Of a stretch of 64,000 bases of DNA, positions 30,119-41,429 are shown one piece after another. The notes below the pieces were generated by a model. It saw only the letters and a list, made by a program, of their open reading frames with translations, was not told the DNA's origin and ran no database searches. How positions within the stretch are numbered: the first letter of the stretch is position 1; every line of letters begins with the position of its first letter. The translations under genes were made by a program, and so were the position numbers. The DNA comes from Aminobacterium mobile DSM 12262. GTDB lineage: Bacteria; Synergistota; Synergistia; Synergistales; Aminobacteriaceae. The stretch is taken from positions 62,001 to 126,000 of the forward strand of contig NZ_JAFZ01000004.1 in NCBI RefSeq assembly GCF_000526395.1, in the 5' to 3' direction.

Positions 30119-30165
30119 TGGAGCCGACTTCCGGACTCGAACCGGAGACCCCATCCTTACCATGG
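30119..30165. repeat. Left attachment site copy (tRNA-Thr 3' fragment)
   Basis: Forty-seven bases identical to 41354-41400, covering the tRNA from the anticodon stem to the CCA end. The base after it differs (T here, A at 41401), and then TGTG is shared again. The 5' half of a tRNA is absent here, so this copy is a non-functional remnant. Confidence 0.95.
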
Positions 30166-30306
30166 TTGTGAAGGGGCTTTTTAGGGGGGGAAGGCCACGA
30201 GCGGGTTTGCGTGCTAAAAACACCATAAAAACCAGTATTCATCATGTTTTTTATTTTTTTATAAGCTCCCCTTCTTGCCCCTTCTTTCCCCATATGATAA
30301 TATCAA

Positions 30307-30328
30307 AATAGAGTCTGAATAGAGTCCG
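30307..30328. repeat. Candidate integrase arm-type sites (left)
   Basis: Two adjacent 11-bp units, AATAGAGTCTG and AATAGAGTCCG, in tandem about 35 bp before the integrase start. The 8-bp core ATAGAGTC recurs at the right end (41286-41293) and in inverted form next to it. This fits arm binding sites of a tyrosine integrase. Confidence 0.5.
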
Positions 30329-30360
30329 GCTACACACATCATAAGGGGGCTCCAAAAAAA

Positions 30361-31554
30361 ATGACTGTAGCAAAACTGACAAACACATATGTAAAAAATT
30401 TAAAGCCGAATAAAAAAAGATATAGTGTACGGGATACTGAAATTAAGGGGCTGTTAATTCGAGTTGAACCGTCAGGACGCAAATTTTTCTATTTAGACTA
30501 TTATACCCCCGAGGGTACGCGGACGTCAAAAAAAATAGGCGACGCAAACGTCCTGACCCCCGCCCTTGCCCGCGAAATGGCTACTCTGCTCCTCTCCAAA
30601 ATTATTCGTAAAATTCCCCTCGAACCTGAAAAAAAAACAAAAGAACTGACCGTAGGAGAAGTTTTTGAAAAATATAAAATATTCGTGCAAGCAAATCATA
30701 AAAGTTTTAACAATACGCTTATTTTTATTTCGCTTTTTTCTTGTCTTTTTCAAAAAAAATGTTCGGAATTGACAATTTTCGACCTCGAAAAATGGAGGGA
30801 TAAAAAAAGAAAAAGCAAAAAAGCAGCAACAATAAATAGGTATGTTTCCGCATTTCGGGCGATGTTGCGCTGGGCAAAAGAAAGAGATATTATTTTCGCT
30901 TGCCCCGCTATTGAAAAAAAAATGAAAGCTCTGCCCGAAACAGATTCGCGAGAAACAGTCCGATATTTGTCTCCAGACGAAAGAAAAAGACTATTCGAAG
31001 AATTAAAAAAAAGGGAAAAGCGACAAGGAAAAGACTATCTCCTCCCGGCCGTAACGCTCTCCCTGAATACCGGTATACGGCGCGGAGCGTTGCTATCACT
31101 GCGTTGGGAGGATATAAATTTTGAGCGAGAGATAATAACTTTACGCGCGAAAAATGCCAAAAACCAAAAAATGGATTATATTCCTATGAATATTATTGTT
31201 AAAAATGTATTACAAAAATGGAAAGAGGTACAAAAAAATCCGAATGATAACGATTTAATTTTTCCACATCCCGGAACAGGAAAAAAAATGCACGACTGCC
31301 GTACTGCATGGGAAAAAGTACTGAAAAATGCAAAAATTGAAAATTTTCGGTGGCATGATATGCGGCATGATTTCGCCTCGCAATTAGTCATGAAAGACGT
31401 AAATATTCTGACTGTTCAGAAACTTATGACCCATTCAAATTTGGAAATGACGCTTCGGTACGCGCATCTCGCGCCAAAAAAACAAAAAGAAGCAGTGCAA
31501 AAAATAGAAGATTTATGCCCTATATATCCTATATATATGGAAGATAAAAAATAA
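30361..31554 (+). CDS. int: Tyrosine recombinase (integrase), DUF4102-type
   Basis: Catalyses site-specific integration into and excision from the tRNA-Thr att site. The N-terminal domain (about 1-85) resembles the arm-binding DUF4102 domain; a SAM-like core-binding domain follows (about 95-190). The catalytic domain has Arg in NTGIRRGALLSLRWEDI, His-x-x-Arg in WHDMRHDFAS, His in LMTHSNLEMT and the nucleophile Tyr in LRYAHLAP. Length 397 is typical. It lies next to attL, pointing into the element. It is Lys-rich and AAA-heavy, unlike host genes. Confidence 0.95.
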   Translation: MTVAKLTNTYVKNLKPNKKRYSVRDTEIKGLLIRVEPSGRKFFYLDYYTPEGTRTSKKIGDANVLTPALAREMATLLLSKIIRKIPLEPEKKTKELTVGEVFEKYKIFVQANHKSFNNTLIFISLFSCLFQKKCSELTIFDLEKWRDKKRKSKKAATINRYVSAFRAMLRWAKERDIIFACPAIEKKMKALPETDSRETVRYLSPDERKRLFEELKKREKRQGKDYLLPAVTLSLNTGIRRGALLSLRWEDINFEREIITLRAKNAKNQKMDYIPMNIIVKNVLQKWKEVQKNPNDNDLIFPHPGTGKKMHDCRTAWEKVLKNAKIENFRWHDMRHDFASQLVMKDVNILTVQKLMTHSNLEMTLRYAHLAPKKQKEAVQKIEDLCPIYPIYMEDKK

Positions 31555-31573
31555 AAATAAGGAGGGAACAAAA

Positions 31574-31972
31574 ATGCAAAAAGTAATTCCTTGTACGGCA
31601 TTTTTCGAAGAAGCGACAGAAAATGGCGGCCTCGTTGGATATTTCGGGGGGGATATAGATTGCGTATGCGCGCCAGAACTAAAAAACGCACAAAAATATA
31701 TTCGAAACATATACTTTCTTTGGGATTCTGCTTTTGATTTTATGATAGAGAATGAGATGTATTCCATTTTGGAAAGATACCCGCGACATTACGTTCGCTA
31801 TTTACTTTCGGAAGCAATTTTTGTAGAAGGAAATGGAATAATGTTTCACGTGAAACAATATTTTAAAAAAATGCAACAATATATGACGATGGAAAACGGA
31901 TGGCAAGAAGATTATATTTTCTCCGCGGTAGCTTTTTTTAGAAAAATAGAAAAAATAATAGAAAAAAACTAA
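31574..31972 (+). CDS. Hypothetical element protein containing a parS sequence
   Basis: Not recognised. It has 132 residues, many aromatic (Phe, Tyr, Trp), no TM and no known motif. AAGGAGGG precedes ATG 31574, 19 bp after the integrase stop, so the two are probably cotranscribed. Codons for MFHVKQ near residue 90 contain the perfect 16-bp parS palindrome. Confidence 0.75.
   Translation: MQKVIPCTAFFEEATENGGLVGYFGGDIDCVCAPELKNAQKYIRNIYFLWDSAFDFMIENEMYSILERYPRHYVRYLLSEAIFVEGNGIMFHVKQYFKKMQQYMTMENGWQEDYIFSAVAFFRKIEKIIEKN
31842..31857. promoter_or_regulatory. Perfect parS (ParB-binding) site
   Basis: TGTTTCACGTGAAACA is a complete 16-bp palindrome identical to the consensus parS used by chromosomal ParB/Spo0J. 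It lies inside the coding sequence of an element gene. No parA or parB gene is present in the window. Confidence 0.85.
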
Positions 31973-32137
31973 AACAAATAAAAAGGGGGGAAAGAACTCC
32001 CCCCCTCTCCTAACCTCTCCTAAATTTTCCTCCTTAACCCGAAAAAAAACTCAAAAAATATACTTCCAAAATACAAATACAGTATCAAAATACCCCAACC
32101 CCCCAAAAAAGTTAGTAGTTGCAAGGGCTCCCAACGA

Positions 32138-32200
32138 CCCCAAAGAGGCAAGTATGCTTGCGCTTTGGGGACACTTTTCGCAAAAAAATGCGAAAAAGTG
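32138..32200. other. Two adjacent stem-loops at the end of the mob operon
   Basis: First hairpin: CCCCAAAG (32138-32145), inner GCAAG/CTTGC, and CTTTGGGG (32163-32170). Second: CACTTTTCGCA (32172-32182) with TGCGAAAAAGTG (32189-32200), one bulge. Neither has a T tract beyond the stem in the minus-strand direction, so a simple terminator is doubtful. They might be structured RNA or single-strand replication initiation sites. Confidence 0.5.
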
Positions 32201-32204
32201 AAAA

Positions 32205-33275
32205 TTAATAAATTAATTCAATTTCTTCTTCCTCGTCTTCATTTTTTTCTGGAACTTCCATTCCCGATATTTTTTGTATTTCTTTTTCTATTTCTTCTTT
32301 TTCCAGTTTCTTCGCCACTTTCGCGATTTTGATGTTCATGTATTCATCATTTTTTTGTGCCGACATATCCATTTTTTTTATATTTGGCGAAAATTTTATT
32401 AATAAATCTTTAATTTTTGCTATGGTTTTTCCAGACAAAATTAATATTTTTATCATTTTTTCGTCTGCGACACCCAAAGATAAATTTTTTTCTAAAAATA
32501 AAAAATAGATACTTTCTATTATTTTTTCGATGTCGTCCGTTCCTGACTCATCGCTCTTTTCTTTTTCCACCTTTTCCACCTTTTCCACCTGAGATTTTCC
32601 GAAAATTTCCCGCACATCCGGAGGAAAAACGCCGCAAAAATCCTGATATATGGCGTGGCAATGCATACATATATTTCCTTTTTCTTCCTCTTTTGCCACG
32701 TAATATTTTTCTATTTTTTTAAATCCTCCCCCTAAAAAAAAGTCTGAAAAAACCTGCGAGCCAGGGAGGAAAAATCCCCATTCTTCGTCATTTTTTTGCG
32801 AAAATAACGCTGGAGGAACGCCAAAATTCGAAGAAATGTCATGTCGCGCCGCCAAATACGCTCTTTCCTCATTTCCAGGCTCCCTGTAGCATTTTAATAC
32901 GCTAAAATAATAATCTCCTGCGCCCGAATACTCCCCCTCTCCTTCGGGATTTTCAATTTTCTGAATAAAAAGAGGTGAAAAATGAGTGTCGAGCGGGGCA
33001 TACGTCGCATATTTTGTGGGGTGATATTCCCCCAGGGTTTGTTCCTGCATATTTTTGAAATCGTACATCGACGCGAAATACGTATGAAAATAACGGAAAA
33101 TAGACGAATGTGGAGTAATAATACAGTTTTGTCTATTTTCTTCCCCCCATTTCAAAATTTTCTCGTATCCACGCAAAATGTCCCTGGCGTCCGTTCGGCC
33201 CTCCCATCCACGAATTGAGTATTCATCAGCTTTGAGCAAATTGAAAATATATTCCAAATAATCTGTATTTGCCAT
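32205..33275 (-). CDS. Hypothetical element protein downstream of the relaxase
   Basis: Not recognised. It has 356 soluble residues. The N-terminal 230 residues form a compact region with a possible metal site C-M-H-C followed by C seven residues later (about 200-212). A charged linker with repeats VEKVEKVEKEK follows, then a Lys/Glu-rich helical C-terminus ending in an acidic EEEEIELIY tail. It lies 18 bp after the relaxase gene and may work with it. I could not see primase motifs, although an IncQ system would need a RepB primase and this is one position where it might be. Confidence 0.7.
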   Translation of the reverse strand: MANTDYLEYIFNLLKADEYSIRGWEGRTDARDILRGYEKILKWGEENRQNCIITPHSSIFRYFHTYFASMYDFKNMQEQTLGEYHPTKYATYAPLDTHFSPLFIQKIENPEGEGEYSGAGDYYFSVLKCYREPGNEERAYLAARHDISSNFGVPPALFSQKNDEEWGFFLPGSQVFSDFFLGGGFKKIEKYYVAKEEEKGNICMHCHAIYQDFCGVFPPDVREIFGKSQVEKVEKVEKEKSDESGTDDIEKIIESIYFLFLEKNLSLGVADEKMIKILILSGKTIAKIKDLLIKFSPNIKKMDMSAQKNDEYMNIKIAKVAKKLEKEEIEKEIQKISGMEVPEKNEDEEEEIELIY

Positions 33276-33293
33276 ATCTTTTTCCCCCTATAA

Positions 33294-34625
33294 TTAGGAT
33301 AAAATTTCCATTTCCGGAATATATTTCTCTTTTTCCGGCTTTTTCTCCTTTTTCCGCTCTTTTTCTGTTCCTATCGTTATTTCTCTCCCGTTTATTTTCA
33401 TTTTTTCTTCCCATTTTTCGCGTTTTAGATTTTTTACGGCTTTTTCCCCGAGAATTTTTAATTCATCATCCGAAATGGGGGTGTCTGTATGTATATATAT
33501 TTTTCGAATAAATACTTCTGAAGCTGACATAATGTCTACCTCTCCGTTCGCGTACGCGCGTACACATACCCCCGGCCCCTTTACCTGTCGATATTTTCCT
33601 CTTTCGTACCGCTTTTCCCGCTCTCGTATAGCTTTTTCGGCTTCGTTTTCGCGCATTTCGAGAGTTGTTTTTTCGATTTCTTTCATTTTTTTCATTTTTT
33701 CCTGTAGTTTTTTTCGAATTTCGTTTTCTGGAAGCGCCAATAATCTTCGTAGCGCATAGCTTTTTCCCGTTTGTATGTCCACAATTGTCAACGTTTTTCT
33801 TTTTTTGTTGGAGTTTTTTGCGACGCGCTCTATGATTCCCCATTTTTCTGGGAGTTTTTCCCCCTCTCCCTCAAAAAAAACTCTCGCCGCCAGATACGCT
33901 ATTTTTTGGTTTTCGTTCGCATATTTTCGTCGTTTTTCGAGATATTCGCATGCCGACACGTCGCGGGAGTTTCGCAACTTTCCCTTTCTCCACATCTCCC
34001 ACTTTTGGCCATTTATTTTTTTCGTATTGGGCCGGTCGGCCCGTTTTTCTGTGGTGGCGTCGTATCCCTGCTCCCGCAAGACTTCCGCTATTTTTTCCCG
34101 CATTTTTTCCATTTCGTCATTTTTTTCTATTTTGGTGTAGTGGGGTTTTTTTCCGTCTCGATTTCGCATGCGAAAAATGACGTGTAGGTGCAGGTTTTGT
34201 GTTTGCCCCTCTTTTTTCCCCCTGTGTAGCGCATACGAAAAATCCGCGCTGTCTCCGGCTACCGCATACGCAATTTTTCGGCATATATTTTTTCGCTCTT
34301 CGGCATCGCAATTTTCAAAAATGTCGTTCGGAAGTGGAACGTTAAACTTTTCCGCAATCTTCGCGTCTTTCCGGGTTCGCATTTTTTCGAAATCTTTTTC
34401 GCACGAAATTCCAGTCTCGCTACACGATATTTCTGTCCATCGCCGCGAAATTTCATATCTGTCATTTAAAATTTTTAAATTTTCAAAATTTCGGGAAATG
34501 TGCTCGAATTCGAGGCATTCTTTTTCCCGCGAAATATATTTGCAATGCGCGGCCGCTTTCGCATAATCTTTTCTGCCAGCGCAATCCCCGGTAAAATTGT
34601 TTGATACTCGCCATTTTATTTTCAT
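33294..34625 (-). CDS. mobA: MobQ-family relaxase (MobA-like)
   Basis: Nicks oriT and pilots the transferred strand. Near the N-terminus, AKAAAHCKYISREKE parallels the RSF1010 MobA segment around its catalytic Tyr25, making Tyr30 the likely nucleophile. The metal-binding histidine motif is NLHLHVIFRMRNRDG near 150, after a KFNVPLP / ICRKIAYAV block as in MobA. The C-terminal half is a very Lys/Glu-rich helical region and has no RepB-type primase domain, unlike RSF1010 MobA (about 709 residues). A short C-terminal repeat of KEKKPEKEK type precedes the end. Family assignment comes from reading motifs. Confidence 0.82.
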   Translation of the reverse strand: MKIKWRVSNNFTGDCAGRKDYAKAAAHCKYISREKECLEFEHISRNFENLKILNDRYEISRRWTEISCSETGISCEKDFEKMRTRKDAKIAEKFNVPLPNDIFENCDAEERKNICRKIAYAVAGDSADFSYALHRGKKEGQTQNLHLHVIFRMRNRDGKKPHYTKIEKNDEMEKMREKIAEVLREQGYDATTEKRADRPNTKKINGQKWEMWRKGKLRNSRDVSACEYLEKRRKYANENQKIAYLAARVFFEGEGEKLPEKWGIIERVAKNSNKKRKTLTIVDIQTGKSYALRRLLALPENEIRKKLQEKMKKMKEIEKTTLEMRENEAEKAIREREKRYERGKYRQVKGPGVCVRAYANGEVDIMSASEVFIRKIYIHTDTPISDDELKILGEKAVKNLKREKWEEKMKINGREITIGTEKERKKEKKPEKEKYIPEMEILS

Positions 34626-34678
34626 TTTTGTGCACCTCTTTTAAAAATTTCGGTAAAGGATACTGGTTTTCTGGGGGG

Positions 34679-34695
34679 ATGGGGGGAACCCCCAT
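34679..34695. repeat. Inverted repeat near oriT
   Basis: ATGGGGG, GAA, CCCCCAT form a 7-bp-armed palindrome 25 bp to the left of the oriT candidate, in the gap between the relaxase and mobC genes. Confidence 0.6.
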
Positions 34696-34719
34696 GTGTG
34701 TTGTTGTTATCACTTATGG

Positions 34720-34761
34720 GTTTGGCGTAGCCAAACGCGGTTTTGTGCCCTCCTCCCTATG
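34720..34761 (+). other. Candidate origin of transfer (oriT), R1162-like
   Basis: GTTTGGC, GTA, GCCAAAC form a perfect 7-bp inverted repeat with a 3-base loop; after GCGGTTTT comes GTGCCCTCCTCCC. As I recall, the R1162/RSF1010 oriT has the same plan: an inverted repeat with a short loop, a spacer and GTGCG/CCCTCCC containing the nick. It lies in the only sizeable gap between mobC and the relaxase gene. The nick is inferred near 34748 on the plus strand. Confidence 0.65.
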
Positions 34762-34786
34762 TTAGAAGGGTGGAGGGGGGAGAAGC

Positions 34787-35137
34787 CTACTCTCCCCTTC
34801 CATTTTGATTTTGTGTTTTCTGGTTTTTGATTTCCGAAAAAATAAATTTTAAAAGTGCATTTATGTTTTCCTTTTTTATTTTTTCCAATTCTTCATATTT
34901 TTTTTCGCGTTTCATTTTTTTATATTTTTCATCTTGTAAAATTAAAAAATCCCCAAGGGCGTCAAATTTTTCTCCCAAAAAACTTCTCGCGACTCCCCCT
35001 GTCAAGATTTTCTTTCGGGTTTCGCGTTTCCTATCCTTTTCTTTTTCTCCTTTTTCCAGAATTTTTATGTCAGCCTCCAGTTTATTTTTTTTCTCTATCA
35101 TTTTTTCTATTTTTGTTCTCATTTTTTCTTTCTGCAT
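34787..35137 (-). CDS. mobC: Relaxosome accessory protein, MobC-like
   Basis: Probably helps open oriT for the relaxase. The 116 residues are charged and helical: a coiled coil IEKMIEKKNKLEADIKILEK is followed by KEKDRKRETRKKILTGGVA. This closely resembles RSF1010 MobC, where a LEEQRARINAEIQRV coiled coil precedes ERKNETRRKVLVGA. It is on the same strand as the relaxase with oriT between them, whereas RSF1010 mobC is divergent. The similarity was read by eye. Confidence 0.75.
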   Translation of the reverse strand: MQKEKMRTKIEKMIEKKNKLEADIKILEKGEKEKDRKRETRKKILTGGVARSFLGEKFDALGDFLILQDEKYKKMKREKKYEELEKIKKENINALLKFIFSEIKNQKTQNQNGRGE

Positions 35138-35165
35138 TTTTTATATCTCTCCTCTTATTTTTTTT

Positions 35166-36653
35166 TTATTTTTGGGTGGGCGCGATAGGGTCCCCCCCTA
35201 CCACGCTTTGTTGTAATACAGCGACACCGACACCTTTTTTTGATGTGTTTTTTCCGACGACGTGCCGCACAAATCCCCGCGTCACCCCCGCGGTGGTGAC
35301 TAGGCTACTCGAGATTCGACTTCCTATCTGTGTCATACCTGCGGAAAAGCCGTCCGACGTAGCCGAAAGCAAGCTGGAAATAACGGAAGGCAACGCAAAC
35401 GCCCCCAAAATGTATGCCGCACCGATTATTATAAAAGTTAATAATCCTGAGTCCATACTGGCGTACAGCAAAACGATAAGAATCAAACAGTATACATTCG
35501 CTACAGGAACGTAAAATAAAAATTCAAAAAGTTTCTTCAAAATTGTCGAGGGGGTGTTCTCGAAAGACGGTAAAATCGAAAAGGCTAAAACGACGGGAGC
35601 GAGGATAGCGAGAAGTCCGAGGCCGATGTCAGCCAGAATTATCAGAATGATTAGCGCAATTTGCGTAAAAATATATGTTGCGCTAACACAAATTTGTAGA
35701 ACTGTACGACAAACTATACTCGACCATTGAGACGTCCACGTGGCCGGGAGCATGGCCACTTTTGCATCTACGAGGGCGCTGGCGTGCACGAATACGGAGT
35801 CGCCACCTGTTGCCTGCGTTATTATTTTTGTGATGCTGTCAACTATTTGTACACAAAAAATGAGAATATCTGCGAAGTGTACAATAAAAAGCCCTAAAAT
35901 AGCGGCCTTGAAAGCAATTTGTACGGGAACGAGAATCATTTCTGAATTTACAAAATTATTTTTTATTTCAGAAATCATATTTTGCGTACCCCACCAGAGT
36001 ATACGTACTGTGGCGAAATAAAAAAGTAATATAAGCCCTATATTTTGCGCTATTTTTGCGAGGGTTTTTCCATCTTTCCCCGAAAAAACGCCCGATATCT
36101 CCGCTATTTTTGCGAGCCCATCCCCCATTTTTTTGAAATTATTAAATTTTCTAGAAATTTCTTCTTGCGAGGATTTTTCGGCTTCGACTCGCGCGCCCAC
36201 CATGACGACGTCAGTTCCGGAAAGGGCGTCGTCTGTGCCCGTCATATTACTCCTCTCTATCATTTTTTTTGTCTGAATTTGGTAATGTTTGAATATTCCA
36301 GCAAATTCTGCACTTGATACAAATTCTATGCATTCTTGGATATTTTCGGCGCCAAAAATAATAGTTCGCAAAACTGGCCATCGGCCGCCGGACAAACTCC
36401 CGATATTTGCATGGTCAGGCCGCCACGCGTTTTGCCCCCCATTTTTTTGTGTTGGCCCAAAAAACATATAATCGTAGGGGTTTTGCGCGTCTTCCCAGAA
36501 TTGTTCAACATTATTCCTTACCATTTCGTCCAGTTTTAAGCCTGATTTAATATCAGATTCATATTTTTCTACTTCGGCTTCTGCCCCGCCCGAAAACAGA
36601 ACCCCCCCAAGAAAGAAAAATAAAAATAAGCATATATATATGTTTTTCTTCAT
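35166..36653 (-). CDS. Polytopic membrane protein, VirB6/TrbL-like
   Basis: A signal peptide (first 28 residues) and a soluble region of about 165 residues are followed by about six hydrophobic segments between 200 and 430 (e.g. TQIALIILIILADIGLGLLAILAPVVLAFSIL and FYVPVANVYCLILIVLL) and a Ser/Thr/Gly-rich tail. This plan, with a hydrophobic core containing Pro and a periplasmic N-terminus, resembles TrbL/VirB6 inner-membrane conjugation proteins. No type IV secretion ATPase is encoded in the element, so a full transfer channel is not present. Start ATG 36653 is preferred over TTG 36662 by spacing to AAGGAGG. Confidence 0.6.
   Translation of the reverse strand: MKKNIYICLFLFFFLGGVLFSGGAEAEVEKYESDIKSGLKLDEMVRNNVEQFWEDAQNPYDYMFFGPTQKNGGQNAWRPDHANIGSLSGGRWPVLRTIIFGAENIQECIEFVSSAEFAGIFKHYQIQTKKMIERSNMTGTDDALSGTDVVMVGARVEAEKSSQEEISRKFNNFKKMGDGLAKIAEISGVFSGKDGKTLAKIAQNIGLILLFYFATVRILWWGTQNMISEIKNNFVNSEMILVPVQIAFKAAILGLFIVHFADILIFCVQIVDSITKIITQATGGDSVFVHASALVDAKVAMLPATWTSQWSSIVCRTVLQICVSATYIFTQIALIILIILADIGLGLLAILAPVVLAFSILPSFENTPSTILKKLFEFLFYVPVANVYCLILIVLLYASMDSGLLTFIIIGAAYILGAFALPSVISSLLSATSDGFSAGMTQIGSRISSSLVTTAGVTRGFVRHVVGKNTSKKGVGVAVLQQSVVGGDPIAPTQK
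35900..35923. repeat. 24-bp direct repeat, copy 1
   Basis: Begins TAGCGGCCTTGAAAGC and ends TTTGTA; identical to 38772-38795. This copy lies within the VirB6-like gene (codons for QIAFKAAI on the minus strand). Confidence 0.85.
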
Positions 36654-36677
36654 TTTATTCAAGCCCCTCCTTTCTTT

Positions 36678-36890
36678 TTAAAGTTGATTTAAAAAAATCC
36701 AAATGAGGGTGCTTCCTGTCGCGACAAAAAATGCCGTACAAATACCGGTATATAGTATCGTCCCCGCTTCGCCGCTATCATTTTTGGACAAAAAAATTCC
36801 GGCGATGATAAAATTTCCGGTGGCCACCAGAATCCCCAACATATTTAGGATTTTTGTCGCAATTTGCACAAGTCCAACAAACTCTGTCAT
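36678..36890 (-). CDS. Small two-TM protein, VirB2/TrbC pilin-like
   Basis: The 70 residues contain two hydrophobic segments (about 13-33 and 47-67) joined by a short charged loop KNDSGEAG, the overall plan of VirB2/TrbC pilins after processing. It has no long signal peptide. It starts 4 bp before the stop of the preceding gene and lies 24 bp before the VirB6-like gene, supporting a common membrane complex. The pilin call is by shape only; a holin-like or immunity protein is possible. Confidence 0.5.
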   Translation of the reverse strand: MTEFVGLVQIATKILNMLGILVATGNFIIAGIFLSKNDSGEAGTILYTGICTAFFVATGSTLIWIFLNQL

Positions 36891-37480
36891 TTTATTTCCC
36901 CTCCTATATTTCCCATTTTTAATTTTTTTTGGAATTTTGTCGTAAAACTAGAAAAATTTTTGCGTGCTAAAAAGTTTGAAAAAATAAATATTTCCCCGAT
37001 ATTTGCCCCGCTTTTTTGCCCCCATTTTTTGTGAAAGCCCAAATATTCAGGATTGTCGAAACTTTTCAGGCGATTCCAAAAATATTCTTCCGCGACAAAA
37101 ATATTCCCGCGCGCGCAAAGAATACCGTCTTGGTCGTGTATTTGAATTGCGTTTCCATTTTTTTCGGCCAGTAACAACCCCGAAAAAATAGGCGATACAC
37201 ATACTTCTATCCCCGCCCGCGCGAAAGCAAAAGAAAAAGGCTCGTCCCGCAACATACCTATACGGGTATTCTTCCATTTCTTCTGACAGAAATTAATTAT
37301 TTCCATCTCGTTTTCAGAATTTTTTAAAATTAGCGGAAAAATATAATCACTTGCTTTAATTTTTTTAAATTTTTCAATGTAAAATTTTTTTTCTTCCTGA
37401 ACGAAAAAGTAGTGTTCATCAATATTTTCGCCTTTCCATCCCTGTATTGGCGCGATTATTTTCCACGTTTTTTTCTGCAT
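36887..37480 (-). CDS. Hypothetical element protein
   Basis: Not recognised. It has 197 soluble residues, Lys- and Phe-rich, starting MQKKTWKIIAPIQGWKGENI. ATG 37480 has GGAGG 8 nt upstream; ATG 37495 in the same frame lies in that ribosome site and is rejected. It overlaps the VirB2-like gene by 4 bp, so it belongs to the same operon. Confidence 0.7.
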   Translation of the reverse strand: MQKKTWKIIAPIQGWKGENIDEHYFFVQEEKKFYIEKFKKIKASDYIFPLILKNSENEMEIINFCQKKWKNTRIGMLRDEPFSFAFARAGIEVCVSPIFSGLLLAEKNGNAIQIHDQDGILCARGNIFVAEEYFWNRLKSFDNPEYLGFHKKWGQKSGANIGEIFIFSNFLARKNFSSFTTKFQKKLKMGNIGGEIK

Positions 37481-37501
37481 TTTTATGTCCTCCATTTATA
37501 A

Positions 37502-37981
37502 TTAAAAATAATTAATTTCCCGATTAAATTTTTCTGAAGTGACGTCGATATCGACTTTCGCGATATGCTTCCGAAGCCATTTCCACCTCCACCCGATTTT
37601 GCTTCCCGCAATTTCTTCTTCCGTTCCAATTTTTCTGAAAATAACTCCTGAAATTCCGGCGGCGGCATATTTTGATTTTGTGTTTTCCGGGACAAAAATT
37701 GCTGAAATTCCCATTTTTTCGAGACGGCTTTTGAAAACGGAAAGGTCAGGCACGCCCGCAACTGCTAGCTCTATGGCGCTTTTAATTTCTTCCGCATTAT
37801 TTTTTGGGATTTTTTGGGATAGATTTTTTTGCATTTCTTTTTCTTTTTCTGCCTGTTTTTTCTTTCTTTTCTCCCTGTATTTTTTTCCAAAAAATACAGA
37901 TATCCGTTTTGAAATTTGGAATACAAAAAATGAGAAAAATAGGCCCGACAAAAATCCAATTTTAAAAAAATGATATGGCAT
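37502..37981 (-). CDS. Membrane-anchored hypothetical protein with a GSKIG motif
   Basis: One N-terminal TM (about 8-28) and a Lys/Glu-rich coiled coil precede a small domain: SRLEKMGISAIFVPENTKSKYAAAGISGVIFR then EEEIAGSKIGWRWKWLRKHI. The GI-S-x-x-F ... GSK-x-G-x-x-W-x-x-L pattern resembles a short segment found in several plasmid relaxases and mobilization proteins, so a role in transfer is possible. GGGAGG precedes ATG 37981. It is the first gene after the long non-coding block. Confidence 0.55.
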   Translation of the reverse strand: MPYHFFKIGFLSGLFFSFFVFQISKRISVFFGKKYREKRKKKQAEKEKEMQKNLSQKIPKNNAEEIKSAIELAVAGVPDLSVFKSRLEKMGISAIFVPENTKSKYAAAGISGVIFRKIGTEEEIAGSKIGWRWKWLRKHIAKVDIDVTSEKFNREINYF

Positions 37982-38096
37982 GTGCCCCCCTCCCTATGAT
38001 ATTCCCTATGATATAATTAAGGTTTTACTAGAATTTTGTTGCTGATAAAAGTATAGCGGGGGGATTTAAAAACAAACAAAAAAAAGAAGAAATATA

Positions 38097-38118
38097 AAAG
38101 TCTAAATATTTAGACTTT
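38097..38118. repeat. 22-bp perfect palindrome
   Basis: AAAGTCTAAAT followed by its exact reverse complement ATTTAGACTTT with no spacer. It lies 116 bp upstream of the 37981 gene. It suits a dimeric repressor operator or a cruciform in the replication region. Confidence 0.85.
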
Positions 38119-38371
38119 ATCGTCCAAAAAAAATACGTCCAAATGTGAGACGTTTTAGAGAGGGGGGTATGTATTTACCCATTTGAGAAAATGAGAAATT
38201 TTGAGACGAAATGGTGCCCTCCTAGAAATATTTGGGGGGGGTTATGTAGGTCTTAAGACCCATAAAAACATGAAATGTAAAAAAAGGAGAAGACAAAAAT
38301 AAGAGTTTTATGTCTTATTTTTTTTTAAAAAAAATATCCTAAATATATATATGAGTGAAAATTTTAACAAT

Positions 38372-38402
38372 AAGTAATGGAGCTTGAGCGGCTCCCTTAC
38401 TT
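38372..38402. other. Stem-loop in the non-coding block
   Basis: AAGTAA-T-GGAGC pairs with GCTCC-C-TTACTT across a 7-base loop. The following plus-strand TTTATCTCTTT is only weakly T-rich, so terminator function is uncertain. Confidence 0.55.
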
Positions 38403-38437
38403 TATCTCTTTAGTGCATACAAAGCCTATATATTTTC

Positions 38438-38480
38438 TAAAATATATATATATATATATAGATACATATATATAGAATAT
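38438..38480. repeat. TA-dinucleotide-rich run
   Basis: Alternating TATATATATATA with a second ATATATATA block, interrupted once. A possible DNA-unwinding segment of the replication region. Confidence 0.7.
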
Positions 38481-38771
38481 GTACATATAGGAGTCTTTTT
38501 TTTCGAAGATTTTCCTAAAATCGAGAAAAAAATAAGCGTGTATGTACATATAAAAATAATGATAGACAGAGCGTAGCTCTGCTTATTTTCGTTTTTATAT
38601 AGGGATAGATATAGCTCTCGGGGGCGCAAAATAGAAGATTTTTGCCCCCCCATCGAGCATTTCTCTATTTTTTTCCCATTTTTTTAAAAAACGTATAAAA
38701 AAAATAGCGAAACAAAACCTGAATTGCCGCTGTCGCGGCGGCGTGGTCGCGTCAAACAAATCATTGCACGT

Positions 38772-38795
38772 TAGCGGCCTTGAAAGCAATTTGTA
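38772..38795. repeat. 24-bp direct repeat, copy 2
   Basis: Identical to 35900-35923 but in non-coding sequence; similarity ends abruptly on both sides. Confidence 0.85.
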
Positions 38796-38821
38796 TGGAT
38801 ATATATGTTTTTGTTTTTCTT

Positions 38822-38848
38822 CCTGCGCGCGCGCGGCGCGGCGCGGGG
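38822..38848. other. GC-only burst in AT-rich DNA
   Basis: A run of CTGCGCGCGCG followed by GCGCGGCGCGGGGG is embedded in sequence that is otherwise very A/T-rich. RSF1010 oriV also contains a GC-rich tract beside its iterons. Confidence 0.7.
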
Positions 38849-38967
38849 GTGTGTTGTCTATGCAGAAGCATACCCCCCTAATTTTTGTCCAAGGAGGGGG
38901 GTATTTTTCCCAAAAAAATCTTTTAAAAAATATTAAAATATAAAAAAAATATAAGGATATACATAAA

Positions 38968-39000
38968 CAAAACCCCCCTGTTTCTGGGGGTTTGTTTTTG
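38968..39000. terminator. Bidirectional terminator downstream of repC
   Basis: AAACCCCC, CTGTTTCT, GGGGGTTT followed by GTTTTTG on the plus strand; on the minus strand the complement runs into TTTTGTTTATG. It lies 140 bp after the RepC-like gene's stop, beyond the iterons. Confidence 0.8.
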
Positions 39001-39075
39001 TATTTACGTTTTAAATGTTTTAGGCGGAAAATAATCTCCGGAAGCCTTGCAAATACCACATCTTTTTGTAGTGCA

Positions 39076-39138
39076 ATCGTAGAATATGATACTAATATCG
39101 TAGGATGTGATACTAATATCGTAGGATGTGATACAACT
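39076..39138. repeat. Three tandem 21-bp iterons
   Basis: Units at 39076-39096, 39097-39117 and 39118-39138 share ATCGTAG(A/G)AT(A/G)TGATAC. Unit 1 differs from unit 2 at two positions; unit 3 differs only in its last four bases. They abut the RepC-like gene, as expected for initiator-binding iterons of an IncQ-type oriV (RSF1010 has three and a half 20-bp iterons). No spacer sequences, so not a CRISPR. Confidence 0.88.
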
Positions 39139-39140
39139 CT

Positions 39141-39965
39141 TCATTTTTTTCTTCCCGTTTTTGTGCTTTTCGGCCTCGAAATAATATACTTTCCGTCGTT
39201 GTTTTTTGCGATGGTAAATTTTATTTTTTCCAATTCTTCAAGCGCCGGAATTAATCCCCTTCTCTCAAATTGCCAAATGTCCGTTTGCGCCCCTATCAAT
39301 TTTTGGAAATCTTCCGGCGTGCCCGCAAAATGTTGTCGGGGGATGAGGGCCCAGTATATCCCCCGCGCCGTATCCGAGTTTATGGAATTTAGTTCAGCGG
39401 CGTCGGCGTACAGACATTCCTTTTTCTCCCCCTCCTCTGGGATAAAAAAGCGAAGTGGGTATATAGTTGCCACCGCCCCTTTTCTTCCTCTTTTTTCTAT
39501 TTTTGTCGCCCAAAAATTCGAATAAAACTCATTTCCCCCCGAAAATCGCGCGGCAAGAGTTATCTCACCCAAAATTTCTACGGAATGTCGTACATTTTCT
39601 CGCCCCGCTCCCCTTCCTGCCCTGCATATGTCGTAAAGTTCGGAAAGTGGAAACGAAGACATGTAGCGGCCGCTGTCAGTGCCCGTATCTGCCCCCACTA
39701 ATTTTTCTGCGCCGTATTTTTGCAGGAGCGCCAGCACCCCGAGAAATACGCCCATTTCAGGATTGGCGCGCAACGGCTCTCGAGAAGAAACTAAAATTTC
39801 CTCGCCGAAATTATTTTTTTGTTGGAAGTATATTTTTCCGTTTCGCGCATACGCGCCGCGCGGCATGGGCGCTCTCGTCGCCGGAAAAATGCAACTTCGA
39901 AAAAATATATGTGGCAAATATGCCTTTTTCTGTACTTCTTTTTCTGGTATTATTTTTTTTGCCAT
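39141..39965 (-). CDS. repC: RepC-like replication initiator
   Basis: Probably binds the adjacent iterons. The 275 residues follow RSF1010 RepC in order: SREPLRANPEMGVFLGVLALL in the first half, INSDTARGIYWALIPRQHFAGTPEDFQKLIGAQ in the middle (RepC: LDSETARLLHQRL), and RRGLIPALEELEKIKFTIAK...YIISRPKS at the end (RepC: VREALPELVALGW ... YDITRPKA). Winged-helix structure is likely. ATG 39965 follows a GGGGGGT site; the open frame to 40043 would overlap repA. Homology is read from memory, not computed. Confidence 0.78.
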   Translation of the reverse strand: MAKKIIPEKEVQKKAYLPHIFFRSCIFPATRAPMPRGAYARNGKIYFQQKNNFGEEILVSSREPLRANPEMGVFLGVLALLQKYGAEKLVGADTGTDSGRYMSSFPLSELYDICRAGRGAGRENVRHSVEILGEITLAARFSGGNEFYSNFWATKIEKRGRKGAVATIYPLRFFIPEEGEKKECLYADAAELNSINSDTARGIYWALIPRQHFAGTPEDFQKLIGAQTDIWQFERRGLIPALEELEKIKFTIAKNNDGKYIISRPKSTKTGRKK

Positions 39966-40014
39966 GGTTGTTACCCCCCACATTTTTATGATATGCTTTT
40001 TTTGGTTGTTAGCC

Positions 40015-40875
40015 TCATTTTTTAAAGAATTTTCTGAATTCACTTGGCATTTCTTCTTCCTCTAGGGCGGCAAAGGAAGCCGCCCTTTCTTTTTGGATAT
40101 TTTTTTCGGACAACACCCCTTCTTTCCCGTGACATAGCATTATTGGGGGAATGGGGGGGGCATTATTTAATTTAACAAAATTCAGTTTTACTTGCTCTTG
40201 TGAATTTTGGTTTTTTTTTGGTAAAGATAACGTAAGCGCGCAACGAACTGACGTGATAAGAGTACTCCCGCCCCGTATACCCACCCAAGTATCGTCATAT
40301 CCGTCTACGACTGCATTTTTCGCAACGTGGTGCAAAAGCAAAATGGCAACGTTCGCCTGAATCGCAATTTTTTCGAGCCAGGAGACCAAAATGGAAAAAT
40401 TTGTATTCGTCTCCTCTCCGCAAAAAACGCGGGATAAAGGGTCCAGAATCACGAAGTCAAAATTTTTAAAAAATTCTACGTATTCCTGTATTTTTTCTGT
40501 ATTTTCTTTTTCCGCGAAAAATAAAGGCCCCATCCCCCGCCGCGAGCACATATAGAGATTTTTTTGTATTTCTTTTTCTTTTTTCAGGAGCGTGGGCATG
40601 GCGCGGAATATAGCTACCGCACGCTTTTTGACCTCTTTTTCGCCCCCCTCCCAGCACACATATAAAACTTTTCTAGGAGGTGAAAAAAAAGAACTAATTC
40701 CGGTCATTTTTTCTCCCGCCGACAATTCCATGGCCCATTCCTGCGCGAGAAAAGATTTTCCGAGGCCACCTGCGCCCGCAAATATAGCTATTTCTCCTCT
40801 TTCCACCCCCGGGAAAATATATTCTTCGTCTTCAAAAATGTAGGATGAGGAAATGTTTATTTTTTTAGGCTTCAT
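40015..40875 (-). CDS. repA: RepA-like hexameric replicative helicase
   Basis: AAA/RecA-type (AAA_25) ATPase resembling RSF1010 RepA, which unwinds DNA at oriV. Walker A is GAGGLGKSF near residue 30, Walker B FVILDPLSR near 140, and the sensor motif is AILLLHHVAK followed by GIRGGSTLITSVRCALTL (RepA: VFLHHASK ... SRGSSVLVDNIRW). The 286 residues fit RepA (about 280). ATG 40875 is preceded by AGGAGG; the frame runs on to 40989 through the HTH gene, so the longer form is rejected. Confidence 0.85.
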   Translation of the reverse strand: MKPKKINISSSYIFEDEEYIFPGVERGEIAIFAGAGGLGKSFLAQEWAMELSAGEKMTGISSFFSPPRKVLYVCWEGGEKEVKKRAVAIFRAMPTLLKKEKEIQKNLYMCSRRGMGPLFFAEKENTEKIQEYVEFFKNFDFVILDPLSRVFCGEETNTNFSILVSWLEKIAIQANVAILLLHHVAKNAVVDGYDDTWVGIRGGSTLITSVRCALTLSLPKKNQNSQEQVKLNFVKLNNAPPIPPIMLCHGKEGVLSEKNIQKERAASFAALEEEEMPSEFRKFFKK

Positions 40876-41113
40876 TTTTTTCTCGGCCTCCTGGAATGAC
40901 ATGTACGGAATTTTCCAAAATCCAGGTGTCCAACTCGTTTTTGGCGTATCTGACCGCGCCGCTGGACATACGAAAGTAGGGCGGCGCAACTCTTTTCCCT
41001 ATATTTCCAGTTTCCCGAAGTTTTGCCAGATATTTCTCTGAGTATCCCGTATACGCCGCCGCTTCCCGAGTTGTCATCCATTTTTTTTCTACTTCTTTTT
41101 GCTGTTTTTGCAT
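40865..41113 (-). CDS. Excisionase/AlpA-like HTH protein
   Basis: The 82 residues hold a winged-helix MerR/AlpA-type DNA-binding domain: KKWMTTREAAAYTGYSEKYLAKLRETGNI, then the wing PPYFRMSSGAVRYAKNELDTWI. Such proteins act as excisionases or as repressors of replication genes. It overlaps repA by 11 bp, so it heads the repA-repC operon and lies at the attR end. An imperfect inverted repeat just upstream could be its operator. Xis or RepF-like roles cannot be told apart here. Confidence 0.8.
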   Translation of the reverse strand: MQKQQKEVEKKWMTTREAAAYTGYSEKYLAKLRETGNIGKRVAPPYFRMSSGAVRYAKNELDTWILENSVHVIPGGREKNEA

Positions 41114-41116
41114 GGC

Positions 41117-41160
41117 ATATGCACCTTCCTATTTTTGAAGTTTTAGGAAGTGTGCCTGCG
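41117..41160. promoter_or_regulatory. Candidate operator upstream of the HTH-repA-repC operon
   Basis: GCACCTTCCTA and TAGGAAGTGTGC are imperfect inverted arms around TTTTTGAAGTTT, immediately before the HTH gene start, suggesting autoregulation. Confidence 0.5.
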
Positions 41161-41279
41161 CATGGGGGGGTCAAACAGGAAAAAGGGGGTTAAAAGAGTA
41201 TTTTTTAAAAGATGAGTCTAAAGACCTATTTTTTATTTATTTTTTATTTTTTTATTTTTGGGGTGGAAAATGGGGAAAA

Positions 41280-41293
41280 GACTCTATAGAGTC
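41280..41293. repeat. Candidate integrase arm-type site (right)
   Basis: GACTCTATAGAGTC is a perfect 14-bp palindrome made of ATAGAGTC and its reverse complement, the same 8-mer that is repeated before the integrase gene. It lies 61 bp inside attR. Confidence 0.5.
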
Positions 41294-41314
41294 TATAAAG
41301 AGTTCAAGAATGAA

Positions 41315-41345
41315 AAAGGGCTCCGACGAAATCGCCGGAACCCTT
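41315..41345 (-). terminator. Element-borne terminator after tRNA-Thr(GGT)
   Basis: On the minus strand AGGGTTCCGGCGA pairs with TCGTCGGAGCCCT (two G-U or mismatched positions) and runs into TTTTT. It lies inside the element, 9 bp beyond the restored tRNA, and would stop tRNA-operon transcription from entering the element. Confidence 0.75.
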
Positions 41346-41353
41346 ACTAAGAC

Positions 41354-41429
41354 TGGAGCCGACTTCCGGACTCGAACCGGAGACCCCATCCTTACCATGG
41401 ATGTGCTCTACCTGCTGAGCTAAGTCGGC
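41354..41429 (-). tRNA. tRNA-Thr (GGT), restored at the element junction (attR)
   Basis: A 76-nt cloverleaf with acceptor GCCGACT/AGTCGGC, anticodon GGT in ATGGTAA, T-loop GTTCGAGTC and encoded CCA. Bases 41354-41400 are shared with the left att copy, so the 3' part comes from the element (or the original gene) and 41401-41429 is the host 5' part. The tRNA remains intact. Confidence 0.96.

What the first reader, a model, noticed from the sequence alone, without database searches (positions are those of the whole stretch)
31842..31857. Perfect parS site inside an element gene
A complete 16-bp TGTTTCACGTGAAACA occurs in a coding region of the element, although no parAB is present. A specific 16-mer is not expected by chance in 64 kb. 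It could recruit the host ParB to the element, aiding stable inheritance when excised or replicating, or it may mimic chromosomal parS.
Basis: partly seen in the sequence, partly recalled or inferred. Interest (0 to 1): 0.75.

Follow-up and report, generated by a model that had tools for sequence, protein, structure and literature searches.

The report
parS centromere site on mobile element
A small integrated mobile element in the bacterium Aminobacterium carries a perfect copy of its host's chromosome-segregation site (parS) but no segregation genes of its own, so it probably borrows the host's ParB machinery to be inherited when it is excised; a known element does the same with a plasmid's machinery.

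Summary
TGTTTCACGTGAAACA at 31842-31857 is exact, and nothing else in the window comes within 3 mismatches. The genome has only three such sites at up to 2 mismatches; the other two lie just downstream of the chromosomal parAB. This site lies in an 11.2-kb tRNA-Thr-integrated element (30119-41353) with a tyrosine integrase, a MobQ-like relaxase, RepA-like replication genes and iterons, and no ParB. It is inside a 132-aa orphan gene just after the integrase. The host ParB carries the parS-specific residues (R..G). In two congeners, one of them A. colombiense, parS occurs only at parAB, and the syntenic insertion locus is 0.33 Mb from oriC, so this is not the origin cluster. Distant relatives of the element's relaxase, integrase and Rep lack parS, so conservation gives no support. 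Independent support: exact parS is strongly over-represented in IMG/VR phage contigs (over 120, extrapolated to at least ~575, versus 3, 11 and 33 for control palindromes), and 46 of 50 whole records have no ParB. Best reading: the element borrows host ParB for inheritance. The precedent is SGI1, which borrows a plasmid's ParB. Binding is very likely; function is inferred. New variant of a known kind.

The parts
31842..31857 (.). perfect parS palindrome TGTTTCACGTGAAACA
   Evidence: identical to the host's primary parS at G000:C1:239598
31574..31972 (+). 132-aa orphan ORF that contains the parS in frame (MFHVKQ); good ribosome-binding site, 20 bp after the integrase
   Evidence: no family or homologue; low-confidence all-helical AlphaFold model
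30361..31554 (+). tyrosine integrase (Arm-DNA-bind_3 + Phage_integrase)
   Evidence: Pfam 3.4e-30, phrog_1 3.3e-69
30119..30170 (.). att copy: duplicate of the tRNA-Thr 3' end (52 bp, 1 mismatch)
41354..41429 (-). tRNA-Thr(ggt), attachment site; repeat 41354-41405
33294..34625 (-). MobQ-like relaxase, HxH motif NLHLH
   Evidence: NCBIfam MobQ 2.7e-10, below cut-off; Pfam Relaxase 5.5e-4, below cut-off; motif invariant in alignment A1
35166..36662 (-). polytopic membrane protein, TrbL/VirB6-like by topology (inference; no family hit)
40015..40989 (-). RepA-like hexameric helicase (AAA_25)
   Evidence: Pfam 5.8e-26; 24-28% identical to plasmid RepA helicases
39141..40043 (-). probable replication initiator (weak Rep3_C winged helix)
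   Evidence: Pfam 0.035, weak; homologue next to a RepA homologue in another Synergistota genome, L221
39076..39138 (.). three 21-nt iterons beside the Rep gene, probable plasmid-type origin
   Evidence: family D11
30119..41353 (.). whole integrated mobilizable element (11,235 bp from att copy to att copy)
   Evidence: different DNA at this place in two congeners

Best explanation
The site is a functional host-type parS carried by an integrative mobilizable element that has no ParB. When the element is excised and replicating from its own iteron origin, host ParB loads on this parS, spreads over part of the 11-kb circle and couples it to host ParA, so that copies are segregated with the host origins instead of being lost. 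When integrated, the site is an extra ParB nucleation point about a third of the way from oriC to the terminus, a position a bacterium could plausibly tolerate. Shown: exact site, element anatomy, no ParB in the element, host ParB with parS specificity, parS restricted to parAB in congeners. Inferred: binding in vivo, spreading, a stabilizing effect, an excised replicating form.
For: Exact site, identical to the host's primary parS. Host ParB has R/K/Q/G at the four specificity positions; R and G define parS binding (PMC7383237). The element has integrase, att repeats, relaxase, RepA-like helicase, Rep and iterons but no ParB, so it plausibly has an extrachromosomal, replicating stage with no partition genes of its own. 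All other parS of the genus are at parAB. Precedent: SGI1 carries parS copies that bind IncC ParB and stabilize it (PMC10954446). Generality: exact parS in viral contigs exceeds matched palindromes strongly, with no ParB in 46 of 50 whole records, and such contigs are real phages.
Against: A single site in one element, with no close sister element to test conservation. Distant relatives of its relaxase, integrase and Rep lack parS. The site lies in a coding sequence. Synonymous codon use gives it a 4% chance given the peptide, which is only mildly suggestive. No data show excision, replication or ParB binding. The search behind the finding covered many windows, so a chance hit somewhere is not negligible.
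Confidence: 0.55

Rival explanations
1. Chance: the 16-mer arose by accident inside an orphan gene. Host ParB may bind it, but without benefit to the element.
For: One site only, in a coding sequence, not seen in distant relatives. The site is compatible with a normal peptide (MFHVKQ). Many windows were scanned, so rare coincidences will be found.
Against: Expected exact hits are about 2e-6 in the element and 0.01-0.05 in the ~190 Mb of family genomes. In phage DNA, exact parS outnumbers three control palindromes (3, 11, 33) by at least 17-fold by extrapolation, so most such sites in mobile DNA are not accidents.
Confidence: 0.28
2. Regulatory site: ParB loaded at this parS spreads over the neighbouring integrase and the 132-aa gene and represses them, tying excision to the host cell cycle, rather than segregating the element.
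For: The site is 288 bp downstream of the integrase in a probable operon. ParB spreading of up to about 2 kb around a single site is reported in Caulobacter (PMC5815017, section heading), which would cover both genes.
Against: No direct evidence of any effect on expression; it would act together with segregation rather than instead of it.
Confidence: 0.1
3. The site is a normal secondary chromosomal parS that happens to be inside an inserted element.
For: Some other family genomes have exact parS sites with no parB nearby on the sequence held (L196, L199, L200, L203).
Against: The DNA around it is the element itself, absent from the same place in both congeners, which have no parS there. The genus keeps parS within about 3 kb of parB.
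Confidence: 0.04

Closest known systems
SGI1-family integrative mobilizable elements with parS copies of IncC plasmids (PMC10954446)
   Same: An integrated mobilizable element carries parS copies of another replicon and uses that replicon's ParB; there binding and stabilization were shown experimentally.
   Different: SGI1 borrows a helper plasmid's ParABS and has two copies plus the small protein Sci. Here the single site matches the host chromosome's parS and ParB, and nothing has been tested.
Chromosomal parABS/parS of Aminobacterium (G000:C1:238550, 239598, 241582)
   Same: Identical 16-bp site; ParB with parS-type residues.
   Different: Chromosomal sites lie beside gidB-parA-parB; this one lies in a mobile element on another contig.
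Phage phi29 spore entrapment through host Spo0J (from memory; not checked, paper not held)
   Same: A mobile genome without its own ParB exploits the host's ParB.
   Different: Lytic phage and sporulation; not an integrated mobilizable element.
MobQ-type integrative mobilizable elements
   Same: tRNA-integrated, tyrosine integrase, MobQ-like relaxase, own replication genes.
   Different: Sequence is very divergent; most genes are orphans.

Membership tests
chromosomal-type parS site | TGTTTCACGTGAAACA or near match | tested here: met
   exact
chromosomal-type parS site | cognate ParB with R173/G201-type residues in the same cell | tested here: met
   with PMC7383237
chromosomal-type parS site | bound by ParB in vivo | not testable with these tools
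   needs ChIP-seq or binding assay
chromosomal-type parS site | location in the origin-proximal parAB cluster | tested here: not met
   other contig; syntenic locus 0.33 Mb from ori in A. colombiense. It is a parS by sequence, not one of the origin cluster.
integrative mobilizable element | site-specific integrase and att repeats at a tRNA | tested here: met
integrative mobilizable element | relaxase | tested here: inconclusive
   MobQ model E 2.7e-10 but below the curated cut-off, HxH motif present
integrative mobilizable element | transfer dependent on a helper, no full conjugation set | tested here: inconclusive
   only one VirB6-like candidate and no complete set of transfer genes recognised among the element's ORFs; transfer itself not testable
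SGI1-type parS hijack | parS of another replicon without own ParB | tested here: met
SGI1-type parS hijack | stabilization through the borrowed ParABS | not testable with these tools
   needs plasmid stability assay
self-contained plasmid ParABS | own ParA and ParB genes | tested here: not met
   no ParB_N in the element; no ParA among scanned ORFs

The most novel reading that the evidence does not exclude
Carrying the host chromosome's own parS without any ParB is a widespread strategy of mobile DNA, in phages as well as in integrated elements such as this one: host ParB-ParA is used as a public segregation service (or its ParB is titrated or steered), and this element is one instance outside phages.
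Probability: 0.4. Interest if true: 0.8.

Novelty: new variant of a known kind. Interest (0 to 1): 0.58.

Why it matters
Excised integrative elements risk loss at cell division, and how elements without partition genes avoid it is mostly unknown. A 16-bp copy of the host centromere would be the cheapest solution and is directly testable. The same motif is strongly over-represented in phage contigs that lack ParB, so the question reaches beyond this one element.

Tried and rejected
Origin-cluster explanation: rejected by synteny with A. colombiense and a second congener. Homologues of the parS-bearing protein: none in 83 family and 183 class genomes, viral contigs, plasmids or phages; AlphaFold model poor (pLDDT 49), so no fold search was made. 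Sister elements by relaxase: only 30-33% identical relatives in three Synergistaceae genomes, none in viral contigs, one record in genome contigs; no parS within 2 mismatches in their 20-kb regions. Closest integrase (56%, G005) and others at 40-45%: no parS in the regions fetched. Named phages related to the parS-rich phage contigs (CRP-901, CRP-902, MW202675), stretches of 14-50 kb: no parS. Paper searches for phage parS with host ParB or phi29/Spo0J found nothing relevant held.

Full report
What is there. The 16-mer is exact at 31842-31857 and is the only match with up to three mismatches in the window. The window is G000:C4:62001-126000 of a 2.1-Mb assembly in five contigs. Genome-wide, with up to two mismatches, there are three sites: the window's, an identical one at C1:239598 and a one-mismatch one at C1:241582. 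Both C1 sites are downstream of the gidB-parA-parB cluster; the second overlaps the 3' end of a photolyase-family ORF.

The element. A 52-bp direct repeat (one mismatch) of the 3' end of tRNA-Thr(ggt) bounds 30119-41353. Inside are a tyrosine integrase, the parS-bearing 132-aa ORF 20 bp further on, a MobQ-like relaxase with the NLHLH motif, a polytopic membrane protein that looks like TrbL/VirB6 (inference), a RepA-like helicase and a probable Rep protein with three 21-nt iterons beside it. The relaxase and Rep assignments rest on sub-threshold matches. In the two complete congener genomes the place between EF-Tu and tRNA-Thr holds other DNA (5.0 and 2.3 kb) and no parS. So the site came with the element.

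Host context. The complete congener G006 is 1,980,592 bp, the published size of A. colombiense (PMC3035294), so the window is from another Aminobacterium species. In G006, dnaA is at position 132, sampled GC skew changes sign near 0 and near 0.9 Mb, parS is at 1,905,298 beside parB, and the syntenic EF-Tu locus is at 330,583. The insertion locus is therefore about 0.33 Mb from the origin on the other arm. In G007 the two are 0.49 Mb apart. The position in the window's own chromosome is not known, because it is on a separate contig. For comparison, a second parS cluster is tolerated within about 500 kb around the native cluster in Caulobacter (PMC5815017), and parS works within about 650 kb around oriC in P. 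aeruginosa (PMC5098823).

Can the host ParB read it? The four specificity positions of the ParB/Noc family are R,K,Q,G in the host ParB; R and G are absolutely conserved in parS-binding ParB (PMC7383237). The second ParB-like gene (C1:774055) has Q,K,K,R, the Noc signature, and should not read parS.

Chance or selection? Markov expectations are about 2e-6 for the element and 3e-4 for the genome. Given the peptide MFHVKQ, element codon usage makes a perfect parS 4% likely. In 83 family genomes most parS are at parB; four further exact sites (L196, L199, L200, L203) have no parB within 10 kb on the sequence held, in ordinary chromosomal surroundings. Their contexts are unresolved, and some are on short contigs or near contig ends.

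Do other mobile elements do this? Two permuted palindromes gave 3 and 11, and a centre-swapped one gave 33. Of the 215 stretches examined, 213 have no ParB by my own profile in the DNA held; of 50 whole records, 46 have no ParB_N match. These records may be fragments. The contigs are real phages: among 57 sampled long ORFs, at least 16 are terminase large subunits; three contigs have 3-5 exact parS near terminase genes. Flanks prefer A before and T after the site. Contigs are not independent, so the fold enrichment is rough. Two near-identical prophage contigs have parS between integrase and tRNA-Ser.

Conservation. The parS-bearing protein has no relative anywhere searched. Relatives of the relaxase, integrase and Rep in other Synergistota are distant and have no parS. 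This neither supports nor fairly tests the claim.

Judgement. That the host ParB can bind the site is very likely (about 0.9, inference from sequence). That the site was selected rather than accidental I put at about 0.7. That its main use is inheritance of the excised element I put at 0.55. The nearest proven case is SGI1, which borrows a plasmid's ParABS; here the target would be the host chromosome's system.

Noticed in passing
L050:2657-3444; L077:10535-11462; L086:240-961: Phage contigs with 3-5 exact parS copies close to terminase genes and no ParB in the DNA held; exact parS is strongly over-represented in IMG/VR.
   Followed up: partly
L347:6077 and L341:675: Two near-identical prophage contigs with an exact parS between the integrase gene and a tRNA-Ser.
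   Followed up: partly
G000:C1:774055 (L156:5945-6904), also L034: Second ParB-like protein with the four Noc-type specificity residues QKKR, next to dnaB and without parA recognised beside it: a probable Noc homologue in Synergistota.
   Followed up: partly
L199:9972, L203:1437, L196:6056, L200:1546: Exact parS sites in other Synergistota family genomes with no parB within 10 kb (or in the contig held); in G014 parB is 1.14 Mb away.
   Followed up: partly
window 35900-35926 and 38772-38798: A 27-nt repeat (96% identical) within the element, one copy inside the membrane-protein gene, one near or in a short ORF in a poorly coding region; possibly a recombination trace.
   Followed up: no
L157:5688-6975: At the same EF-Tu/tRNA-Thr place A. 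colombiense has what look like broken AbiE-type antitoxin/toxin genes (read by eye from the translation): the place seems to be an insertion hotspot.
   Followed up: no
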